Source of the DNA: Saprospiraceae bacterium
GTDB taxonomy: Bacteria; Bacteroidota; Bacteroidia; Chitinophagales; Saprospiraceae
Length of the DNA: 64,000 nt
Assembly: GCA_029262995.1 (NCBI GenBank)
Contig: JAJCYH010000011.1
Span: 1 to 64,000, forward strand
Direction of reading: 5' to 3'
A program made the translations under genes and the position numbers. Within the stretch, counting starts at the first letter, position 1; the number at the start of each line of letters is the position of its first letter. Below the pieces are notes generated by a model. The model did not search any database. It saw nothing but the letters and a program-made list of their open reading frames with translations, and had not been told where the DNA came from. Shown in pieces: positions 1,534-12,527 of the stretch.

Positions 1534-2562
1534 ATGACAAACGATACTTTGGATTTCACCTATTCTAACAGTGAAGAACCTCATATTCAACGCACCAAAG
1601 CAATCATTAAGAAATATCCTCAGATTAAAGATTTGATGGGTAGATATCCTAAGACCTTTATCTATGCATTAGCCATAGTTATTGCTCAATTAGGAATAGC
1701 ATATTATGTGAAGGACCAATCCTGGTGGATGGTATTGATTGTTGCCTACGCAATAGGTGCATTTGCCAATCATGCATTGTTTGTTTTGATACATGAATTT
1801 TCACACAACATGGTATTCAAATCTAAGATCCCAAACCTTCTTGGAGGAATTATGTGTGATATACCAAATGCCTTTCCAAGTTCAGTGTCATTTAGAAAAT
1901 ACCATCTGAAGCACCATGCCTTTCAAGGTCATTATGACATCGATGCAGATCTTGCCAGTAAATGGGAGGCTAAGCTCATAGGGTCTAAATTTATTGGCAA
2001 ATCATTGTGGTTATTACTATTTCCTCTTTTTCAAGCACTAAGACCTCCAAGATTAAAAGAAATTCAGTTTCAAAGTATTTGGGTGTGGATCAATTTAGTT
2101 ACTGTTTTAGCTGTTGATATTGCAATTTTAATATTAATAGGTCCAATGGCTCTTTTGTATTTGGTAGCCTCATTTTTCTTTTCTGTTGGACTCCACCCCT
2201 TAGGGGCAAGATGGGTTCAAGAACATTATCTAGTAGCTCCTCCACAAGAAACTTATAGTTATTATGGTCCTCTTAATAAATTGTCATTTAATGTAGGTTA
2301 CCATAATGAGCATCATGATTTTTCATTCGTTCCTTGGGTTAATTTGCCTAAAATCAGATCTATTGCTCCTGATTTTTACAATAATTTAGTATATCATGAA
2401 TCTTGGACTAAATTATGGCTGAGGTTTATATTTGATAACGAATTATCTTTGTTTTCACGCGTATTAAGAAGCGATAAAGGGGGTTTAAGCGTCTCTTCCT
2501 CGTCTGAAAAAGATTTCTTTAGCGGAATGGAGAACAAAGAATCAAATATGACAATTAGATGA
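1534..2562 (+). CDS. DES1-like sphingolipid delta-4 (dihydroceramide) desaturase
   Basis: Integral-membrane fatty-acid-desaturase-family enzyme of 342 residues from the ATG at 1534. The three histidine boxes are HEFSH (87-91), HLKHH (124-128) and HNEHH (257-261), with hydrophobic segments around 41-60, 63-86, 152-166 and 181-220. Beyond the generic family, the protein tracks human DEGS1 from end to end as I recall it: an N-terminal block containing KYPxIKxLM and QLGxxYxVKD, and the C-terminal ETYSYYGPLN plus FNVGYHNEHHDF, which are nearly identical. The expected reaction is introduction of the 4,5-trans double bond into a dihydroceramide. Many Bacteroidota make saturated dihydroceramides, so a substrate is plausible. 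The last 25 residues are a Ser/Lys-rich extension absent from DEGS1. Substrate specificity is inference. The gene is monocistronic. Confidence 0.85.
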   Translation: MTNDTLDFTYSNSEEPHIQRTKAIIKKYPQIKDLMGRYPKTFIYALAIVIAQLGIAYYVKDQSWWMVLIVAYAIGAFANHALFVLIHEFSHNMVFKSKIPNLLGGIMCDIPNAFPSSVSFRKYHLKHHAFQGHYDIDADLASKWEAKLIGSKFIGKSLWLLLFPLFQALRPPRLKEIQFQSIWVWINLVTVLAVDIAILILIGPMALLYLVASFFFSVGLHPLGARWVQEHYLVAPPQETYSYYGPLNKLSFNVGYHNEHHDFSFVPWVNLPKIRSIAPDFYNNLVYHESWTKLWLRFIFDNELSLFSRVLRSDKGGLSVSSSSEKDFFSGMENKESNMTIR

Positions 2563-6663: not shown

Positions 6664-7301
6664 TTATTGTTTAAACACTGCAATTGGTTTTGAATCAAAT
6701 CAAGATTATGAACCTCATATTCCTGATAGCCTTCTCCCCACATAATGCCAATTTTAGTTATAAAGTTCTTTTGTAACAATTTTCTATCAGATTTGTCAAT
6801 GGGCAATATACATTTGTAGTTGGTTTTCTCTTCGGACCTGTTCACCTTTCCTTTGTCTCTTTCTATATTTTCAAGATAAATATGATTTCCATTGTCCAAA
6901 TATATTTTCATTTGTGTATTTCGGGCTATATTGCCGTAGCTTCGTTTAGCGTTTATTGAATTGATTTGAATGGAGATTATTAGGAATAGGGATTTATCCA
7001 CTTGATACAAATGTGCTGATGCCTCCATTAGATTTTTTCTCTTGGACCATTTACTAAAGTCGGGTGTTGTATAGAGAAACAATGGTTTATCTTTAAACGC
7101 AATCACGTCTTGTTGGTCTTTTGAAGTCTCCAAGGTTTTTGCACAATCAAAAGATTCTCCTTTTATATTGGATTTGATTTTTGATAAACCAAGTTGGTAT
7201 GAAGGAAAGTTTTCTTGTCCCATTAATGAATTGTTGCCAATACTGGTAAAGATTAAATACAGAAATGCTTTTAATATGAATAACTTTATGTTGTATATCA
7301 T
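6660..7301 (-). CDS. secreted hypothetical protein
   Basis: Protein of 213 residues with an N-terminal signal-like segment (Lys6 then LFILKAFLYLIFTSIG, possible cleavage near MGQ-EN at 28-31). The mature part has two Cys (in FDCAKTL and NYKCILP) and a third in the C-terminal LQCLNNK, so a periplasmic disulfide is possible. The strand-rich middle (LFLIISIQINSI, QMKIYLDNGNHIYLENI) suggests a beta domain. I do not recognise the family. It is the first gene of the group with miaE and the methyltransferase; the 4-nt overlap with miaE suggests co-expression, not shared function. Its promoter is called at 7351-7383. Confidence 0.6.
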   Translation of the reverse strand: MIYNIKLFILKAFLYLIFTSIGNNSLMGQENFPSYQLGLSKIKSNIKGESFDCAKTLETSKDQQDVIAFKDKPLFLYTTPDFSKWSKRKNLMEASAHLYQVDKSLFLIISIQINSINAKRSYGNIARNTQMKIYLDNGNHIYLENIERDKGKVNRSEEKTNYKCILPIDKSDRKLLQKNFITKIGIMWGEGYQEYEVHNLDLIQNQLQCLNNK

Positions 7302-7350
7302 TTATTTTGTATAATAATTTTTAGAACATATAGAAATTATTCGACTAAGA

Positions 7351-7383
7351 CAAATATACTTTGTACACTTAATCAATTTCAAA
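7351..7383 (-). promoter_or_regulatory. promoter for the secreted hypothetical/miaE group
   Basis: On the minus strand, TTTG (7383-7380) is followed after 21 nt by TATATTTG (7358-7351), a perfect -7 element. The predicted transcript start is near 7344, about 43 nt before the start codon at 7301. The -33 box lies in the left arm of an inverted repeat (7376-7411). Confidence 0.5.
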
Positions 7384-7411
7384 CTTAAATCATTTAATTT
7401 CCGTTTGAAAT
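7376..7411. repeat. inverted repeat between divergent genes
   Basis: ATTTCAAAC (7376-7384) and GTTTGAAAT (7403-7411) are perfect 9-base inverted arms separated by 18 nt. The repeat lies in the 134-base gap between the divergent secreted hypothetical and prolyl oligopeptidase genes. Each arm carries a TTTG on one strand. It could be an operator or a transcript hairpin. The AT-rich background makes chance possible. Confidence 0.45.
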
Positions 7412-7435
7412 AATTTAATAAATAAATTAAACATA

Positions 7436-9580
7436 ATGAGCAAGTTAAGTATTATCCTGACAGTATTAATTTTTGTAGGATGTAACTCGGATAAGAGCAT
7501 AAAAATGAAGTCAAATATAGAATTGAATTATCCAGAAACAAGAAAGGATAGCTCGGTTGTAGATGATTACCATAGCACAAAAGTCCAAGACCCATACCGA
7601 TGGTTGGAGAATGATACTGCACAAGACGTAGAGAAATGGGTTATAGAGCAGAACAAAGTAACTGAATCATATCTTTCCCAAATAGAATATAGAGATAAGA
7701 TAAAAGATAGATATACCGAATTGTTTAATTATGTAAAACTAGGTTCTCCTTACAAGATTGGTGATAATTACTTTTTTTCTAAAAATGATGGACTCCAGAA
7801 TCAAGCCGTTATTTATATACAAAAGGGGTTGGAAGGCACTCCAGAAGTGTTTTTAGATCCTAATGCTATGTCAAAGGAAGGTACAGTAGCAATTAATATG
7901 ATCGGTTTTTCATCTGATGATAAGTTTGTTGCCTATTCAAAGCAAAATGCAGGAAGTGATTGGCAGGAGATTCACATTATGAATATTGAAACAAAAGAAA
8001 AATTGACCGATGTACTCAAGTGGGTCAAATTCTCGGGAGCCAATTGGTATAAAGATGGCTTTTTCTATAGCAGATATCCTGAGCCTTCAGATGGAACGGA
8101 ACTGTCTGCAACCAATGATTTTCATTCCGTATATTATCATAAGCTTGGTGATGATCAAAGCAAAGACAAGTTGATTTACAACAATCCAGACAACCCTAGA
8201 CTTTATAACTTTACAAGCATTATGGAAGATGACCGATTCTTGATTCTATATGTTTCTACAGGAACTGATGGCTATGAAACTTATTATAAAGATCTTAACG
8301 ATCCTAAAAGTGAGTTCGTAGCTTTATTTACTGGTTTTGATAATAAGAGTAGAGTCGTTGACAATGTTGGAGATTCCTTTTTGATAACGACAGATATTGA
8401 TGCTCCTAAATACAGATTGATTTCTGTTAACAGCAAAAAACCTTCAAAAGACAATTGGAAGGAAATTATTCCAGAATCGAAGCATTTACTCCAAGGTGTA
8501 TCTACAGGTGGTGGCAAATTATGGGCGAGTTATCTTGTTAATGCAACGACAAGAGTATTTAGATATAATTATGATGGATCAAATAAGAGATCTATTGAAC
8601 TTCCTGGTTTGGGTAGCAGTTCAGGCTTTGGTGGTCGTGAAGATGATACACACTTCTTTTATTCATTTTCTTCTTTTGTTCAACCCAATACAATCTATAA
8701 ATATGATATTGCTTCAGGTGAGTCAGAAGAATTTTTCGAATCTGATCTTAAATTTAACCCCGATGATTATGTAGAGAGACAGGTGTTTTATAAGAGTAAA
8801 GATGGAACAGAAATTCCAATGTTTATTGTACATAAAAAAGACTTGATATTATCTGGAAATAATCCAACATACCTTTATGCTTATGGTGGATTTAATGTTA
8901 ACATGACTCCTTCTTTCAGTACTTCAAGAATGATACTTTTAGAAAATGGAGGAGTGTTTGCAATGCCAAACCTTAGAGGAGGAGGCGAATTTGGTGAGGA
9001 ATGGCATAAAGCTGGGATGCTACTAAATAAACAAAATGTATTTGATGACTTTATTGCAGCAGCTGAATATCTTATAGACTTAAAATATACTTCATCGGAA
9101 AAGTTGGCCATAGCAGGGGGATCAAATGGTGGATTACTTGTTGGTGCCTGTATGACTCAACGACCAGATTTATTCGCTGTTGCATTTCCAGCAGTAGGTG
9201 TTATGGATATGTTGCGCTATCATAAATTTACGGTAGGATGGGGCTGGGTGCCAGAATATGGTTCAAGTGATAGCCTTGAACATTTTGAAAATCTATTGAG
9301 TTACTCTCCCCTTCATAACTTAAAAGAAGGCACTGCTTATCCAGCAACAATGGTGACAACTGCAGATCATGATGACAGAGTAGTACCTGCTCATTCGTTT
9401 AAGTTTGGAGCAAGACTCCAGGAATGTCACTCTGGTGATGCGCCAGTTATCTTACGTATAGAAACTGACGCAGGACATGGAGCAGGGAAGCCTACTTCTA
9501 AAATTATTGAAGAACAGACAGATATATGGTCATTTTTCTTTTACAATACCAATAGCCCTGTATCTTATATTGAAGGTTAA
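7436..9580 (+). CDS. prolyl oligopeptidase family serine peptidase (S9A), lipoprotein
   Basis: Cleaves short peptides after proline. The 714 residues match family length. The N-terminus (SIILTVLIFVGC) has a lipobox with Cys16, so the enzyme should be membrane-anchored in the periplasm or outer membrane. YPETRKDSSVVDDYH and DPYRWLEN mark the start of the S9A beta-propeller. The C-terminal alpha/beta hydrolase domain has GGSNGG with nucleophile Ser563, HDDRVVPAHS with the acid residue at 646-647, and AGHGAG with His681. The Cys and Lys-rich spacing before the propeller are typical of Bacteroidota POP lipoproteins. It is 23 nt upstream of cdaA and probably cotranscribed, although the two are functionally unrelated. 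Confidence 0.92.
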   Translation: MSKLSIILTVLIFVGCNSDKSIKMKSNIELNYPETRKDSSVVDDYHSTKVQDPYRWLENDTAQDVEKWVIEQNKVTESYLSQIEYRDKIKDRYTELFNYVKLGSPYKIGDNYFFSKNDGLQNQAVIYIQKGLEGTPEVFLDPNAMSKEGTVAINMIGFSSDDKFVAYSKQNAGSDWQEIHIMNIETKEKLTDVLKWVKFSGANWYKDGFFYSRYPEPSDGTELSATNDFHSVYYHKLGDDQSKDKLIYNNPDNPRLYNFTSIMEDDRFLILYVSTGTDGYETYYKDLNDPKSEFVALFTGFDNKSRVVDNVGDSFLITTDIDAPKYRLISVNSKKPSKDNWKEIIPESKHLLQGVSTGGGKLWASYLVNATTRVFRYNYDGSNKRSIELPGLGSSSGFGGREDDTHFFYSFSSFVQPNTIYKYDIASGESEEFFESDLKFNPDDYVERQVFYKSKDGTEIPMFIVHKKDLILSGNNPTYLYAYGGFNVNMTPSFSTSRMILLENGGVFAMPNLRGGGEFGEEWHKAGMLLNKQNVFDDFIAAAEYLIDLKYTSSEKLAIAGGSNGGLLVGACMTQRPDLFAVAFPAVGVMDMLRYHKFTVGWGWVPEYGSSDSLEHFENLLSYSPLHNLKEGTAYPATMVTTADHDDRVVPAHSFKFGARLQECHSGDAPVILRIETDAGHGAGKPTSKIIEEQTDIWSFFFYNTNSPVSYIEG

Positions 9581-9603
9581 TTTTTTAAAAATAAAATTAC
9601 CAA

Positions 9604-10404
9604 GTGAGTACATTATTTACTTTTGGCAACTTAGACATTCGAGTACTTGATATATTAGATATCATCATTGCGGCATATCTTATATACTTTATATATAAAT
9701 ATGTGAAAGGTACTGCCGCAGTTAACATTTTTGTGGGGATAGTACTATTTCTTTTGCTTTTGATTGGAGTTACCCAACTGAAGATGCGTCTGTTAACTTT
9801 AATGCTTGGATCAATAGCTGGGATTGGTCTAATAGGTTTGATTGTAATTTTTCAGCCTGAAATTAGGCGCGTTTTACTGATGATAGGAAATAATACCGTT
9901 AAGGGAAGATTTAATTTCCTAGAGAGTTTTTTCAAATTTACAGGCATAAAGAATAAAGCTTTCATTGATAGAGTTTGTGGAAATGTGATTGAAGCTATTG
10001 AACATTTGAGTCAAACAAAAACGGGCGCTATCTTGGTGTTTACAAAGTCTGATTTACCATCTCTCGTAAATACAGGATTTTTTATTGATTCTGAATTGAA
10101 TTCTATATTGCTGGAAGCTATATTTTACAAAAATGCTCCACTACATGATGGCGCCGTAATTATTCAAAACAATCGTATCGTTGCGGCAAGTTGTATTCTC
10201 CCTGTTTCTTCAAGCAATGAAATTCCAAAGGAAATGGGTCTAAGACATAGAGCCGCTTTGGGCGTTGCCGAAAACAATGAGGTGCTAGTGGTTATTGTAT
10301 CTGAAGAAAATGGAGGAATATCGTATGCCACAGACAGAAAGCTCTATTACAACGTATCTAAGGAAGAATTTAAAATTCGACTTGAAAAGTATTACATGTC
10401 ATAG
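9604..10404 (+). CDS. cdaA: diadenylate cyclase CdaA (c-di-AMP synthase)
   Basis: Condenses two ATP into cyclic di-AMP, a second messenger for osmotic and cell-wall homeostasis. It starts at GTG 9604; no upstream in-frame start is better. Three hydrophobic helices fill the first about 85 residues (LDIIIAAYLIYFIY, IFVGIVLFLLLLIGV, GLIGLIVIFQPEIRR), followed by the DAC/DisA_N catalytic domain. The catalytic motifs are DGA at 182-184 and RHR at 214-216, both intact. Length 266 is standard for CdaA. In many Bacteroidota cdaA follows folP; here it follows a peptidase, and folP is 46 kb away. Confidence 0.95.
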   Translation: MSTLFTFGNLDIRVLDILDIIIAAYLIYFIYKYVKGTAAVNIFVGIVLFLLLLIGVTQLKMRLLTLMLGSIAGIGLIGLIVIFQPEIRRVLLMIGNNTVKGRFNFLESFFKFTGIKNKAFIDRVCGNVIEAIEHLSQTKTGAILVFTKSDLPSLVNTGFFIDSELNSILLEAIFYKNAPLHDGAVIIQNNRIVAASCILPVSSSNEIPKEMGLRHRAALGVAENNEVLVVIVSEENGGISYATDRKLYYNVSKEEFKIRLEKYYMS

Positions 10405-10465
10405 CTTTTTGTGAAACATAGTCAATAAAAAATTAACAAAAATTAGCTATTACTGTTTATACATA

Positions 10466-10473
10466 TAAATTTG
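10466..10473 (+). promoter_or_regulatory. -7 promoter element of the M20 peptidase/fkp/trmD operon
   Basis: TAAATTTG followed by C is a perfect TAnnTTTG element 18 nt upstream of the ATG at 10492. It marks the 5' end of a three-gene unit with very tight spacing. Confidence 0.55.
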
Positions 10474-10491
10474 CAGTAATTCAAAATTGAT

Positions 10492-11889
10492 ATGGAATCT
10501 ACGTTAAAGTATATTAAAAAAAACAAAAAAAGGTTTTTAAACGAACTTCTTGAATTTTTAACCATTCCTTCTGTTAGCGCAGATCCTGCATACAAAAAAA
10601 GTGTGAAAGAGGCTGCTCAGTTCTTGGAAGCAAAAATGAAAGAAGCAGGATTGGATAAGGTTAAAATTTACCCTACCAAAGGTCACCCAATTGTTTTTGG
10701 TCAAAAAATAATTGATGCAGCATTGCCAACTATATTAGTATATGGGCATTATGATGTGCAACCACCGGATCCTATCGATTTATGGGAAAGTGGTCCATTC
10801 AAACCAGTTGTTAAGAAAACCAAGCTTCATCCTGAGGGCGCAATTTTTGCTAGAGGTGCCTGTGATGATAAAGGTCAGGCCTATATGCATGTGAAAGCTT
10901 TTGAAGCAATGGTGGAAACCGGCAATTTAGCCTGTAATGTGAAATTTATGATGGAAGGCGAAGAAGAGGTTGGATCTGTTCACCTTGAAAGCTTTTGTAG
11001 AAAATATCAAAAGATGCTTAAGTCTGATGTTGTTCTAATATCAGATACATCAATCATCGCTAATGATGTGCCTTCAGTAACTGTTGGATTACGTGGGTTG
11101 AGCTATTTAGAAGTGGAGATAACTGGTCCCAATAGAGATTTACACTCAGGGGTTTATGGAGGCGCAGTAGCAAACCCAGCAAATGTGCTGTGTGATATGA
11201 TTTCTAAACTTGTGGATAATGATGGGCATATTAACATTCCAGGATTCTATAAAGATGTTGTTGAGCTTTCAGCCGAAGAAAGAAAATCAATGAATAAAGC
11301 ACCTTTTAGTATTAAAAAATATAAAGAGCACTTAGACATAGAAGCAATAAACGGAGAGAAAGGCTACACTACTCTGGAAAGAAGTTCAATAAGACCAAGT
11401 CTTGATGTAAATGGAATATGGGGAGGATATACGGGTGAAGGAGCAAAGACCGTATTGCCCTCAAAAGCATACGCTAAAATCAGTATGCGCTTAGTGCCAA
11501 ATCAAAATCCAGAAAAAATTACTGCTTTGTTTGCTAAATACTTCAACAAACTAGCGCCTAAAGGTGTAAGTGTAAAAGTTACACCACATCATGGAGGAAT
11601 GCCTGCAGTTACACCTACAGACACCGATGAATACAGGGCTGCTCATCTGGCTATGAAAGCAAGCTTTGGGAAGAATCCAATCCCGCAAAGGGGTGGAGGC
11701 AGTATACCTATTGTTGCAATGTTTGAGGATGTCTTTAATGTTAAATCTGTATTGATGGGATTTGGATTAGATTCAGATAATATACATTCTCCAAATGAGC
11801 ATTATGGATTGTTCAATTATTATAAAGGAATAGAAACAATCCCTTACTATTTTCATTATTATAAAGAACTAAAAAATAAAAACCTATGA
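10492..11889 (+). CDS. M20 family metallopeptidase (dipeptidase)
   Basis: Zinc-dependent exopeptidase of the M20/CPG2 dipeptidase type, 465 residues, with no signal peptide. The metal and catalytic residues appear in order: LVYGHYDVQPPD (zinc His and Asp), RGACDDKGQ (bridging Asp), MEGEEEVGS (catalytic Glu and zinc Glu), ISDTS, and a C-terminal IHSPNEH. A lid/dimerisation domain occupies the middle. Length and motifs fit cytosolic nonspecific dipeptidases. It begins a likely operon: its stop codon overlaps the start of the FKBP gene by 4 nt. Confidence 0.92.
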   Translation: MESTLKYIKKNKKRFLNELLEFLTIPSVSADPAYKKSVKEAAQFLEAKMKEAGLDKVKIYPTKGHPIVFGQKIIDAALPTILVYGHYDVQPPDPIDLWESGPFKPVVKKTKLHPEGAIFARGACDDKGQAYMHVKAFEAMVETGNLACNVKFMMEGEEEVGSVHLESFCRKYQKMLKSDVVLISDTSIIANDVPSVTVGLRGLSYLEVEITGPNRDLHSGVYGGAVANPANVLCDMISKLVDNDGHINIPGFYKDVVELSAEERKSMNKAPFSIKKYKEHLDIEAINGEKGYTTLERSSIRPSLDVNGIWGGYTGEGAKTVLPSKAYAKISMRLVPNQNPEKITALFAKYFNKLAPKGVSVKVTPHHGGMPAVTPTDTDEYRAAHLAMKASFGKNPIPQRGGGSIPIVAMFEDVFNVKSVLMGFGLDSDNIHSPNEHYGLFNYYKGIETIPYYFHYYKELKNKNL

Positions 11890-12527
11890 GATATCTTATA
11901 ATTCTCTCATTATTGATCACACAAAATGCAATAGCGCAAATGGATACAGTTAGTTACAGTGTAGGAATGGTAGTCGCAAAAAACCTTAAATCGCAGGGAA
12001 TGTCTGAATTAGATATCAGCTCTTTCACTCAAGCATTTGAAGATGTTTTTAATGGTGTTGAACTTAAATTATCATTCAATGAAGCAACAGAACAATTTCA
12101 AAATTATATGGGCTCGCTCCAAAAAGCAGTAGGCGAGAAAACAAAAAGCGAGGGCTTAGCTTTTTTGGAGGAAAATGGAAAGAGACCTTCGGTAGTTACT
12201 CTTTCATCGGGCCTACAATATGAAGTTATTACAGCTTCTAGTGATACTCAAAAGCCTGCTTTATATGACAAAGTAAAAGTGCATTACCATGGAACGCTTA
12301 TTAATGGAACTGTCTTTGACTCTTCTGTTGAACGTAATGAACCTATCTCTTTCCCTCTAAATGGTGTAATTCAAGGTTGGCAAGAAGGGCTTCAGTTGAT
12401 GTCAGTTGGTTCTAAGTATAAGCTTTACATTCCTTATCACCTGGCTTATGGAGAAAGAGGGGCAGGAGAAGTCATCAAACCATATTCATCACTTGTATTC
12501 GAGGTTGAGCTTCTTGGGATTGAGTAA
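11886..12527 (+). CDS. FKBP-type peptidyl-prolyl cis-trans isomerase, exported
   Basis: Catalyses cis-trans isomerisation of X-Pro bonds during protein folding. It is 213 residues long with a signal peptide (YLIILSLLITQNAIAQ). An FkpA/MIP-type N-terminal dimerisation region is at about 20-105 (SYSVGMVVAKNLKSQGM). The FKBP domain at about 110-213 contains VKVHYHGTLINGTVFDSS, GVIQGWQEGLQLM and IPYHLAYGERGAG, all with expected active-site aromatics. It should be periplasmic. The ATG overlaps the M20 peptidase stop by 4 nt and trmD begins 6 nt later. Confidence 0.93.
   Translation: MRYLIILSLLITQNAIAQMDTVSYSVGMVVAKNLKSQGMSELDISSFTQAFEDVFNGVELKLSFNEATEQFQNYMGSLQKAVGEKTKSEGLAFLEENGKRPSVVTLSSGLQYEVITASSDTQKPALYDKVKVHYHGTLINGTVFDSSVERNEPISFPLNGVIQGWQEGLQLMSVGSKYKLYIPYHLAYGERGAGEVIKPYSSLVFEVELLGIE

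What the first reader, a model, noticed from the sequence alone, without database searches (positions are those of the whole stretch)
1534..2562. Bacterial homologue of eukaryotic sphingolipid delta-4 desaturase DES1
The sequence shows the three His boxes and, beyond them, near-identity to human DEGS1 as I recall it at ETYSYYGPLN and FNVGYHNEHHDF, plus the N-terminal KYPxIKxLM and QLGxxYxVKD blocks (the Lipid_DES region), which ordinary bacterial desaturases lack. Bacteroidota are among the few bacteria making sphingolipids, but those described are mostly saturated dihydroceramides. A DES1-type enzyme here implies delta-4-unsaturated (sphingosine-like) ceramides in a bacterium, through transfer from or to eukaryotes or deep shared ancestry.
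Basis: partly seen in the sequence, partly recalled or inferred. Interest (0 to 1): 0.78.

Follow-up and report, generated by a model that had tools for sequence, protein, structure and literature searches.

The report
Bacterial ceramide desaturase resembling human DES1
A bacterium carries a gene related to the enzyme that gives human ceramide its double bond, in a genome that also holds a set of bacterial ceramide-making genes, so it probably makes unsaturated, sphingosine-like ceramides.

Summary
In detail: 1534-2562 (+) encodes 342 aa with Lipid_DES (PF08557, 51.5 bits, cut-off 23), FA_desaturase (95.3 bits), three His boxes and the quoted motifs. Its genome has serine palmitoyltransferase (SPT) in one cluster with a GNAT acyltransferase, a CerR-like reductase and inositol-phosphoceramide-type genes, and no cysteate acyltransferase of sulfonolipid synthesis. 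The family is common: 40 of 395 sampled genomes of the phylum, at least 581 loci in one collection. In 199 genomes of the window's family, 24 of 32 with PF08557 also have SPT, against 28 of 167 without. In two relatives the gene lies between CerS- and CerR-like genes in an SPT operon; in three others within or beside inositol-ceramide genes. Best reading: a bacterial dihydroceramide delta-4 desaturase; substrate form and double-bond position are inferred. The window gene itself is unlinked. It is not specially close to the animal enzyme (39% to human DEGS1, recalled); a second bacterial type (43-49%) is closer. Direction of any transfer is open; C4-hydroxylation is the main rival. My ten paper searches listed nothing on a bacterial enzyme of this family.

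The parts
1534..2562 (+). CDS of the DES-like membrane desaturase, 342 aa (alternative TTG start at 1525)
   Evidence: family alignments
1552..1650 (+). Lipid_DES N-terminal domain (PF08557), residues 7-39
   Evidence: 51.5 and 55.4 bits, cut-off 23
1720..2397 (+). FA_desaturase domain (PF00487), residues 63-288
1792..1806 (+). His box 1, HEFSH (residues 87-91)
1903..1917 (+). His box 2, HLKHH (residues 124-128)
2248..2277 (+). ETYSYYGPLN block (residues 239-248)
   Evidence: largely invariant in alignments
2287..2322 (+). FNVGYHNEHHDF block (residues 252-263) with His box 3 HNEHH at 2302-2316

Best explanation
The gene encodes a membrane di-iron desaturase that acts on the sphingoid backbone of ceramides made by the bacterium's own SPT - N-acyltransferase - CerR-like pathway. 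It removes two hydrogens between C4 and C5 with O2 and two electrons, turning dihydroceramide (or a keto or inositol-phospho form of it) into a delta-4-unsaturated, sphingosine-type ceramide. Shown here: family membership, His boxes, a predicted fold like that of membrane di-iron enzymes, the ceramide-type gene set in the genome, absence of the cysteate acyltransferase, co-occurrence with SPT, and operon membership of relatives. Inferred: that the GNAT and epimerase genes are CerS and CerR, the substrate form, the C4-C5 position and trans geometry, the head group (probably phospho-inositol), and the electron donor, which is probably not cytochrome b5.
For: PF08557 plus PF00487. Own genome: SPT by NF047600, 703 bits; best solved match SPT 3a2b/8guh, 533 bits, against 255 for cysteate acyltransferase 28eh (3a2b is the S. 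multivorum enzyme). It lies on one strand with a GNAT acyltransferase, an epimerase-fold reductase, myo-inositol-1-phosphate synthase, PgpA, DUF4833, a phosphoinositol-dihydroceramide-synthase-like protein (260 bits, under the 480 cut-off) and a PI-phosphate-synthase-like protein (285 bits, under the 350 cut-off). At the position where cysteate enzymes have Lys281 and SPT has Ala (PMC9304779, passages) own SPT reads Ala (RSLIFSAS) and the cysteate-type enzyme of G150 reads Lys (RSQIFAKS) (position counted by eye on the 7u7h alignment). No cysteate acyltransferase in this genome at E<=1e-90. Relatives: L168 has SPT, CerS-like, DES, CerR-like, PgpA-like on one strand with 4-nt overlaps, a 3-nt gap and a 14-nt overlap; L167 has the same order with overlaps of 4 to 62 nt (start codons chosen by script); L169 has PI-phosphate-synthase-like, DES, FA_hydroxylase, PIDHCS-like, SPT, CerS-like, CerR-like, MIPS on one strand; L181 and L185 have PI-phosphate-synthase-like, DUF4833, DES; L095, a record titled Kiritimatiellae, has CerS-like, CerR-like, DES in a row. 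Co-occurrence in 199 family genomes 24/32 against 28/167, Fisher p=2e-10; by genus 16/21 against 15/91, p=3e-7. Fold: mean pLDDT 82.2, Foldseek probability 1.00 to AlkB (E 3e-3) and to giant-virus desaturases (best E 2e-5).
Against: No lipid data. The window gene is not linked to the ceramide cluster (contig C11 against C4). Only 3 of the 24 family genomes with both genes have them on one contig, and pathway-like genes lie in the flanks of 2 of 80 named loci (flanks up to 8 kb, shorter at contig ends). 8 of 32 family genomes with PF08557 have no SPT at E<=1e-170. In the class sample 6 of 15 lack it, and in the phylum sample only 9 of 40 pass the NF047600 cut-off; the other 25, outside the class, have SPT-like proteins of 477-526 bits, but so do many genomes there without PF08557, so nothing follows from them. 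The GHFI type is weakly tied to SPT (6 of 11, p=0.04). The Fisher tests take no account of relatedness; 5 of the 9 double-positive genomes of the class sample are one genus. No cytochrome b5 in the genome.
Confidence: 0.72

Rival explanations
1. The enzyme works on the same ceramide backbone but hydroxylates C4, giving phytoceramide, like the second activity of DES2.
For: DES1 and DES2 share family and His boxes (recalled), so sequence family cannot separate the outcomes; operon evidence fits either.
Against: No feature seen here favours hydroxylation. The separate FA_hydroxylase (PF04116) in the operons of L168 and L169 shows that a hydroxylation step may have its own gene, though probably for the acyl chain.
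Confidence: 0.13
2. The family acts on the capnoid base of sulfonolipids as well as, or instead of, ceramides.
For: All 6 class-sample genomes with PF08557 but no SPT have the cysteate-type acyltransferase; its G150 copy matches 28eh, named cysteate-C-fatty acyltransferase, at 593 bits and 7u7h at 595, against 240 for SPT. Algoriphagus RIF-2 is said to have a 4-ene capnoid base (recalled; the paper tried is not held).
Against: That acyltransferase is in 90 of 98 class-sample genomes, so its presence says little, and it is absent from this genome.
Confidence: 0.05
3. It is an ordinary acyl-lipid desaturase of phospholipid chains that keeps a Lipid_DES-like N terminus.
For: PF00487 is shared with fatty acid desaturases; 8 of 32 family genomes with PF08557 lack SPT; the window gene is unlinked.
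Against: Place inside SPT operons in relatives, association with SPT, two other PF00487 desaturases in the genome, DES blocks invariant or nearly so across relatives.
Confidence: 0.08
4. Eukaryotic contamination or a recent transfer from a eukaryote.
For: Blocks identical to human DEGS1 as recalled.
Against: G+C 0.348 against 0.346 for the window; one open frame; two genus-mates carry it near the same miaE-like and prolyl-oligopeptidase-like genes (names by eye, loci L174 and L175); nearest named relatives are Saprospiraceae MAGs at 76-81%.
Confidence: 0.01

Closest known systems
Eukaryotic sphingolipid delta-4 desaturase DES1 (human DEGS1), Pfam PF08557 + PF00487
   Same: Both domains, three His boxes, ETYSYYGPLN and FNVGYHNEHHDF blocks.
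   Different: 39% identical over 316 aa to DEGS1 as recalled; HPLGARWVQEHY where the recalled human sequence has HPISGHFIAEHY; partner genes look bacterial, and no cytochrome b5 was found in the genome.
Bacterial ceramide pathway Spt - bCerS - CerR (Caulobacter; PMC11087976, passages read)
   Same: SPT, an acyltransferase and an epimerase-fold reductase clustered in this genome.
   Different: Adds an O2-dependent desaturase, in some relatives inside the operon; 'desaturase' does not occur in that paper's main text. The Caulobacter proteins were not compared directly.
Inositol-phosphoceramide genes (NCBIfam NF052609 and NF052561)
   Same: Homologues lie next to SPT here.
   Different: Scores are below the curated cut-offs; no DES was looked for in any named Bacteroides except the one control genome, which has none.
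GHFI-motif bacterial DES type (L002-L005, L138-L144, L146, L147, L150)
   Same: PF08557 and the same blocks.
   Different: 43-49% to the recalled human enzyme (these 14 are its best 14 of 119), weaker tie to SPT, groups with it in the tree; 41-43% to the window protein for L002-L005.

Membership tests
Sphingolipid delta-4 desaturase (DES) family | Lipid_DES N-terminal domain PF08557 over its cut-off | tested here: met
   51.5 bits, cut-off 23
Sphingolipid delta-4 desaturase (DES) family | FA_desaturase domain with three His boxes | tested here: met
   95.3 bits, cut-off 29.7; HEFSH, HLKHH, HNEHH
Sphingolipid delta-4 desaturase (DES) family | Membrane di-iron desaturase/hydroxylase fold | tested here: met
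   Model pLDDT 82.2, pTM 0.83. Foldseek: AlkB 8sbb_A E 3e-3, probability 1.00, TM 0.53; two better-ranked chains of FtsHi motor complexes are not named by the listing; giant-virus desaturases, best E 2e-5. Modest scores, one direction.
Sphingolipid delta-4 desaturase (DES) family | Sphingoid-base pathway in the same organism | tested here: met
   SPT 703 bits with CerS/CerR-like neighbours
Sphingolipid delta-4 desaturase (DES) family | Genetic linkage to ceramide genes | tested here: inconclusive
   Met in relatives L167, L168, L169, L181, L185, L095; not met for the window gene and for most loci seen (2 of 80 named loci)
Sphingolipid delta-4 desaturase (DES) family | Groups with known DES enzymes, apart from ordinary desaturases | tested here: inconclusive
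   Recalled DEGS1 groups with the bacterial GHFI type, 99/85; one recalled eukaryotic row, outgroup unusable
Sphingolipid delta-4 desaturase (DES) family | Forms a C4-C5 trans double bond | not testable with these tools
   Needs expression and LC-MS/MS
Eukaryotic DES1 system | Cytochrome b5 partner (usual electron donor, recalled; a partner, not a feature of the enzyme itself) | tested here: not met
   0 PF00173 matches in the genome; genome 97.7% complete
Sulfonolipid-pathway desaturase | Cysteate acyltransferase in the same genome | tested here: not met
   No match at E<=1e-90 in G000; present in 90 of 98 class-sample genomes

The most novel reading that the evidence does not exclude
Free-living Bacteroidota and several other bacterial phyla make delta-4-unsaturated, sphingosine-type ceramides with a dedicated desaturase, in some lineages built into an SPT-CerS-CerR operon, and the eukaryotic DES1 descends from (or gave rise to) the bacterial GHFI-motif type, so that a step thought of as eukaryotic is shared with bacteria.
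Probability: 0.25. Interest if true: 0.85.

Novelty: new variant of a known kind. Interest (0 to 1): 0.62.

Why it matters
The double bond at C4 separates ceramide from dihydroceramide, which in animals differ in signalling (established knowledge). If bacteria make the unsaturated form with their own enzyme, lipids read as eukaryotic markers in environmental samples may be bacterial, and bacterial operons become a handle for making sphingosine-type ceramides. It also allows a direct test of where the eukaryotic DES1 came from. The scan includes records titled as strains, Chitinophaga japonensis, C. filiformis and Mucilaginibacter conchicola, in which the lipids could be measured.

Tried and rejected
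Sulfonolipid substrate for the window gene: rejected because no cysteate acyltransferase was found in the genome. Viral or plasmid carriage: no relative in viral contigs (29 pattern matches, none confirmed), phage records or plasmids. Eukaryotic contamination: rejected on G+C, synteny and relatives. Solved-structure relatives by sequence: 6 matches, all SARM1 entries at E 0.8-0.9, taken as chance. NCBIfam gives three matches far below cut-off, PHROGs none.

SPT-like proteins of 477-526 bits outside the class were kept out of the SPT counts because they miss the NF047600 cut-off, although of three loci inspected L132 and L133 have a GNAT-like and an epimerase-like neighbour and L131 the GNAT-like one only (Pfam run for L132 alone). 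Promoter scan: 8 found, 9.5 expected from shuffles. A TAnnTTTG site at 1510 is not informative (97 in the window on both strands; motif recalled). The operon FA_hydroxylases have no blastp match (E<=1e-3) among the ORFs of the five PF04116 loci of this genome.

Rows dropped before counts: the 119 DES proteins were picked by a script that required HNEHH-type boxes and SYYG, so the shared boxes are by construction; HVEHH proteins such as those of L158/L181, L161 and L169 were left out of the 119 and of the tree; 146 picked proteins became 119 after removal of repeats; rows under 280 aa and near-copies (78% or more) were left out of the tree, leaving 62. A first motif count missed two proteins; the recount gives 104 GARW type and 15 GHFI type, L180 (GHFIH) among them. 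Locus L201 (G387) gave no DES ORF with my ORF picker and was not looked into.

Papers: the ten searches listed no paper on a bacterial enzyme of this family, judged by titles and starts of abstracts. Lists were partial: 20 of 69, 20 of 25, 20 of 24, 20 of 16,044, 25 of 105. Only open-licence PMC papers were searchable.

Full report
What is there. The ORF at 1534-2562 (+) gives 342 aa. It matches Pfam Lipid_DES (PF08557, 51.5 bits, cut-off 23, residues 7-39) and FA_desaturase (PF00487, 95.3 bits, residues 63-288). AlphaFold2 on an alignment of 21 sequences gives mean pLDDT 82.2. Foldseek ranks two chains of FtsHi motor complexes first, which the listing does not name further, then AlkB alkane monooxygenase (E 3e-3 and 9e-3, probability 1.00); in the viral library it finds giant-virus desaturases (best E 2e-5). 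Scores are modest but point to the membrane di-iron desaturase/hydroxylase fold.

Where it is. The window begins a 364,620-base contig of a 3.77 Mb genome in 32 contigs, 97.7% complete. The nearest named relatives are Saprospiraceae MAGs at 76-81% identity. Both genus-mates (L175, L174) carry the gene near the same miaE-like and prolyl-oligopeptidase-like genes, in the same relative order and orientation as in the window (names by eye), and its G+C (0.348) equals the window mean (0.346). It is a settled bacterial gene. Its neighbours in the window (a cytidylate-kinase-like gene, a small protein, a large secreted-type protein; by eye) are not lipid genes.

How common. PF08557 is in 40 of 395 genomes drawn from the phylum and in 0 of 14 control genomes, and in 32 of 199 genomes of the window's family.

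The pathway in this genome. Eleven PF00155 matches were found. One, on contig C4, is SPT: NF047600 703 bits against a cut-off of 640, and 533 bits to SPT structures 3a2b and 8guh against 255 to cysteate acyltransferase 28eh. Another is glycine C-acetyltransferase; the other nine were not searched further. The SPT cluster (L136) reads, on one strand: PI-phosphate-synthase-like, DUF4833, phosphoinositol-dihydroceramide-synthase-like, SPT, GNAT acyltransferase, epimerase-fold reductase, myo-inositol-1-phosphate synthase, PgpA. CerS and CerR are my assignments by fold family and position. The final lipid may be an inositol-phosphoceramide.

The sulfonolipid branch. A second enzyme of this superfamily, taken from G150, matches 28eh (named cysteate-C-fatty acyltransferase, 593 bits) and 7u7h (595 bits), against 240 for SPT. 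It is in 76 of 80 and 14 of 18, that is 90 of 98, genomes of the class sample. It is missing in G000 and seven others, and all eight have SPT over the cut-off. So in this genome the sphingoid-type base expected is the SPT-derived one. At the residue that PMC9304779 (passages) gives as Lys281 in cysteate enzymes and Ala in SPT, own SPT has Ala (position counted by eye).

Co-occurrence. In the family sample of 199, SPT (NF047600, E<=1e-170) is in 52, of which 49 pass the curated cut-off. With PF08557: 24 of 32; without: 28 of 167; p=2e-10. By genus: 16 of 21 against 15 of 91; p=3e-7. In the class sample of 98: 9 of 15 against 9 of 83; p=9e-5 (counts). In the whole phylum sample 9 of 40 genomes with PF08557 pass the cut-off and 18 of 395 in all; the 25 PF08557 genomes outside the class have SPT-like proteins of 477-526 bits, as do many genomes there without PF08557, so they decide nothing. 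These are Fisher tests without a tree, and 5 of the 9 in the class sample are one genus. I split the 32 family genomes by type: the 11 that I put in the GHFI type (L138-L147 and L150; L145 is a partial frame assigned by its score) give 6 with SPT, p=0.04; the other 21 (the window's GARW type) give 18, p=2e-9. G544 has both types and is counted with the latter; a few of these 21 were not read for the motif.

Linkage. On L168 the order on one strand is FA_hydroxylase 6882-7508, SPT 7560-8789, CerS-like 8786-9916, DES 9920-10927, CerR-like 10924-11916, PgpA-like 11903-12382; L167 has the same order on the other strand. L169 has PI-phosphate-synthase-like, DES, FA_hydroxylase, PIDHCS-like, SPT, CerS-like, CerR-like, MIPS on one strand. 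L181 and L185 have PI-phosphate-synthase-like, DUF4833, DES near contig ends. L095, titled Kiritimatiellae, has CerS-like, CerR-like and DES in a row, with two short frames before them that look like pieces of a fatty acid hydroxylase (by eye). L105, titled Chitinophagaceae, has inositol-ceramide-type genes 2.6 kb beyond DES on the other strand. Against this, only 3 of the 24 family genomes with both genes have them on one contig, 2 of 80 named loci show pathway-like genes in the flanks, most of the further stretches fetched show none, and the window gene is unlinked. Linkage is a minority state, but it recurs in different lineages.

Types and the eukaryotic question. Of 119 different DES proteins collected (chosen by the boxes), 104 have a G[AG]RW[IV]Q motif and 15 a GHFI motif (which corrects). 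In the tree of 62 bacterial rows, one recalled human row and two other desaturases of this genome, the window protein lies among Saprospiraceae GARW rows, and the recalled human DEGS1 groups with the ten bacterial GHFI rows (99/85). The bootstrap had not settled, the outgroups have extreme branches, and one recalled sequence stands for all eukaryotes, so this is a lead. It suggests that the window gene is not the bacterial sequence closest to the animal enzyme.

Mechanism. Most likely the enzyme desaturates C4-C5 of the sphingoid backbone of dihydroceramide, before or after head-group transfer. No cytochrome b5 was found in the genome, so electrons probably come by another carrier. C4-hydroxylation cannot be excluded. 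The FA_hydroxylase of the operons may 2-hydroxylate the acyl chain (inference).

What is in print. Ten searches of open PMC text listed no paper on a bacterial enzyme of this family, going by titles and starts of abstracts in lists that were often partial. The passages I saw of PMC11765627, PMC10626005, PMC13161914, PMC10191378, PMC7237790 and PMC11087976 mention none. PMC7237790 mentions a RIF-1/RIF-2 mixture without structures in those passages; the RIF-2 structure is recalled. Closed papers were not searchable, so absence is weak evidence.

Verdict. A real and common bacterial branch of the DES family, as far as I could search uncharacterised, with good genetic evidence for work on ceramides. 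The product remains to be shown.

Noticed in passing
L138-L147, L150 and L002-L005: A second bacterial DES type with a GHFIS motif (L145 partial, assigned by score), nearer to the recalled human enzyme and less tied to SPT; L180 is a long-branched GHFIH variant in a genome (G544) that also has another DES.
   Followed up: partly
L168:6882-7508, L167:10149-10838, L169:9479-10141: A small protein beside SPT or DES in the operons; the L168 and L169 copies match PF04116 FA_hydroxylase, the L167 one looks alike by eye; possibly a ceramide acyl 2-hydroxylase.
   Followed up: partly
class sample of 98 genomes: Each of the 98 genomes has SPT or the cysteate-type acyltransferase: 90 have the latter, 18 SPT, 10 both, and the 8 without the latter all have SPT.
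   Followed up: partly
L131, L132, L133: SPT-like proteins of about 480-500 bits to NF047600, under its cut-off, occur in many genomes of other classes of the phylum; in L132 and L133 they have GNAT-like and epimerase-like neighbours, so they may be another SPT form.
   Followed up: partly
L169:10198-11235, L181:7000-8028, L161: DES proteins near the inositol-ceramide genes have HVEHH in place of HNEHH in the third His box.
   Followed up: no
L095: Record titled Kiritimatiellae with CerS-like, CerR-like and DES genes in a row among transposase-like frames; the hydroxylase-like gene before them is in two pieces (by eye).
   Followed up: no
G000: L122, L124: Two further PF00487 desaturases in the genome without PF08557; not classified.
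   Followed up: no
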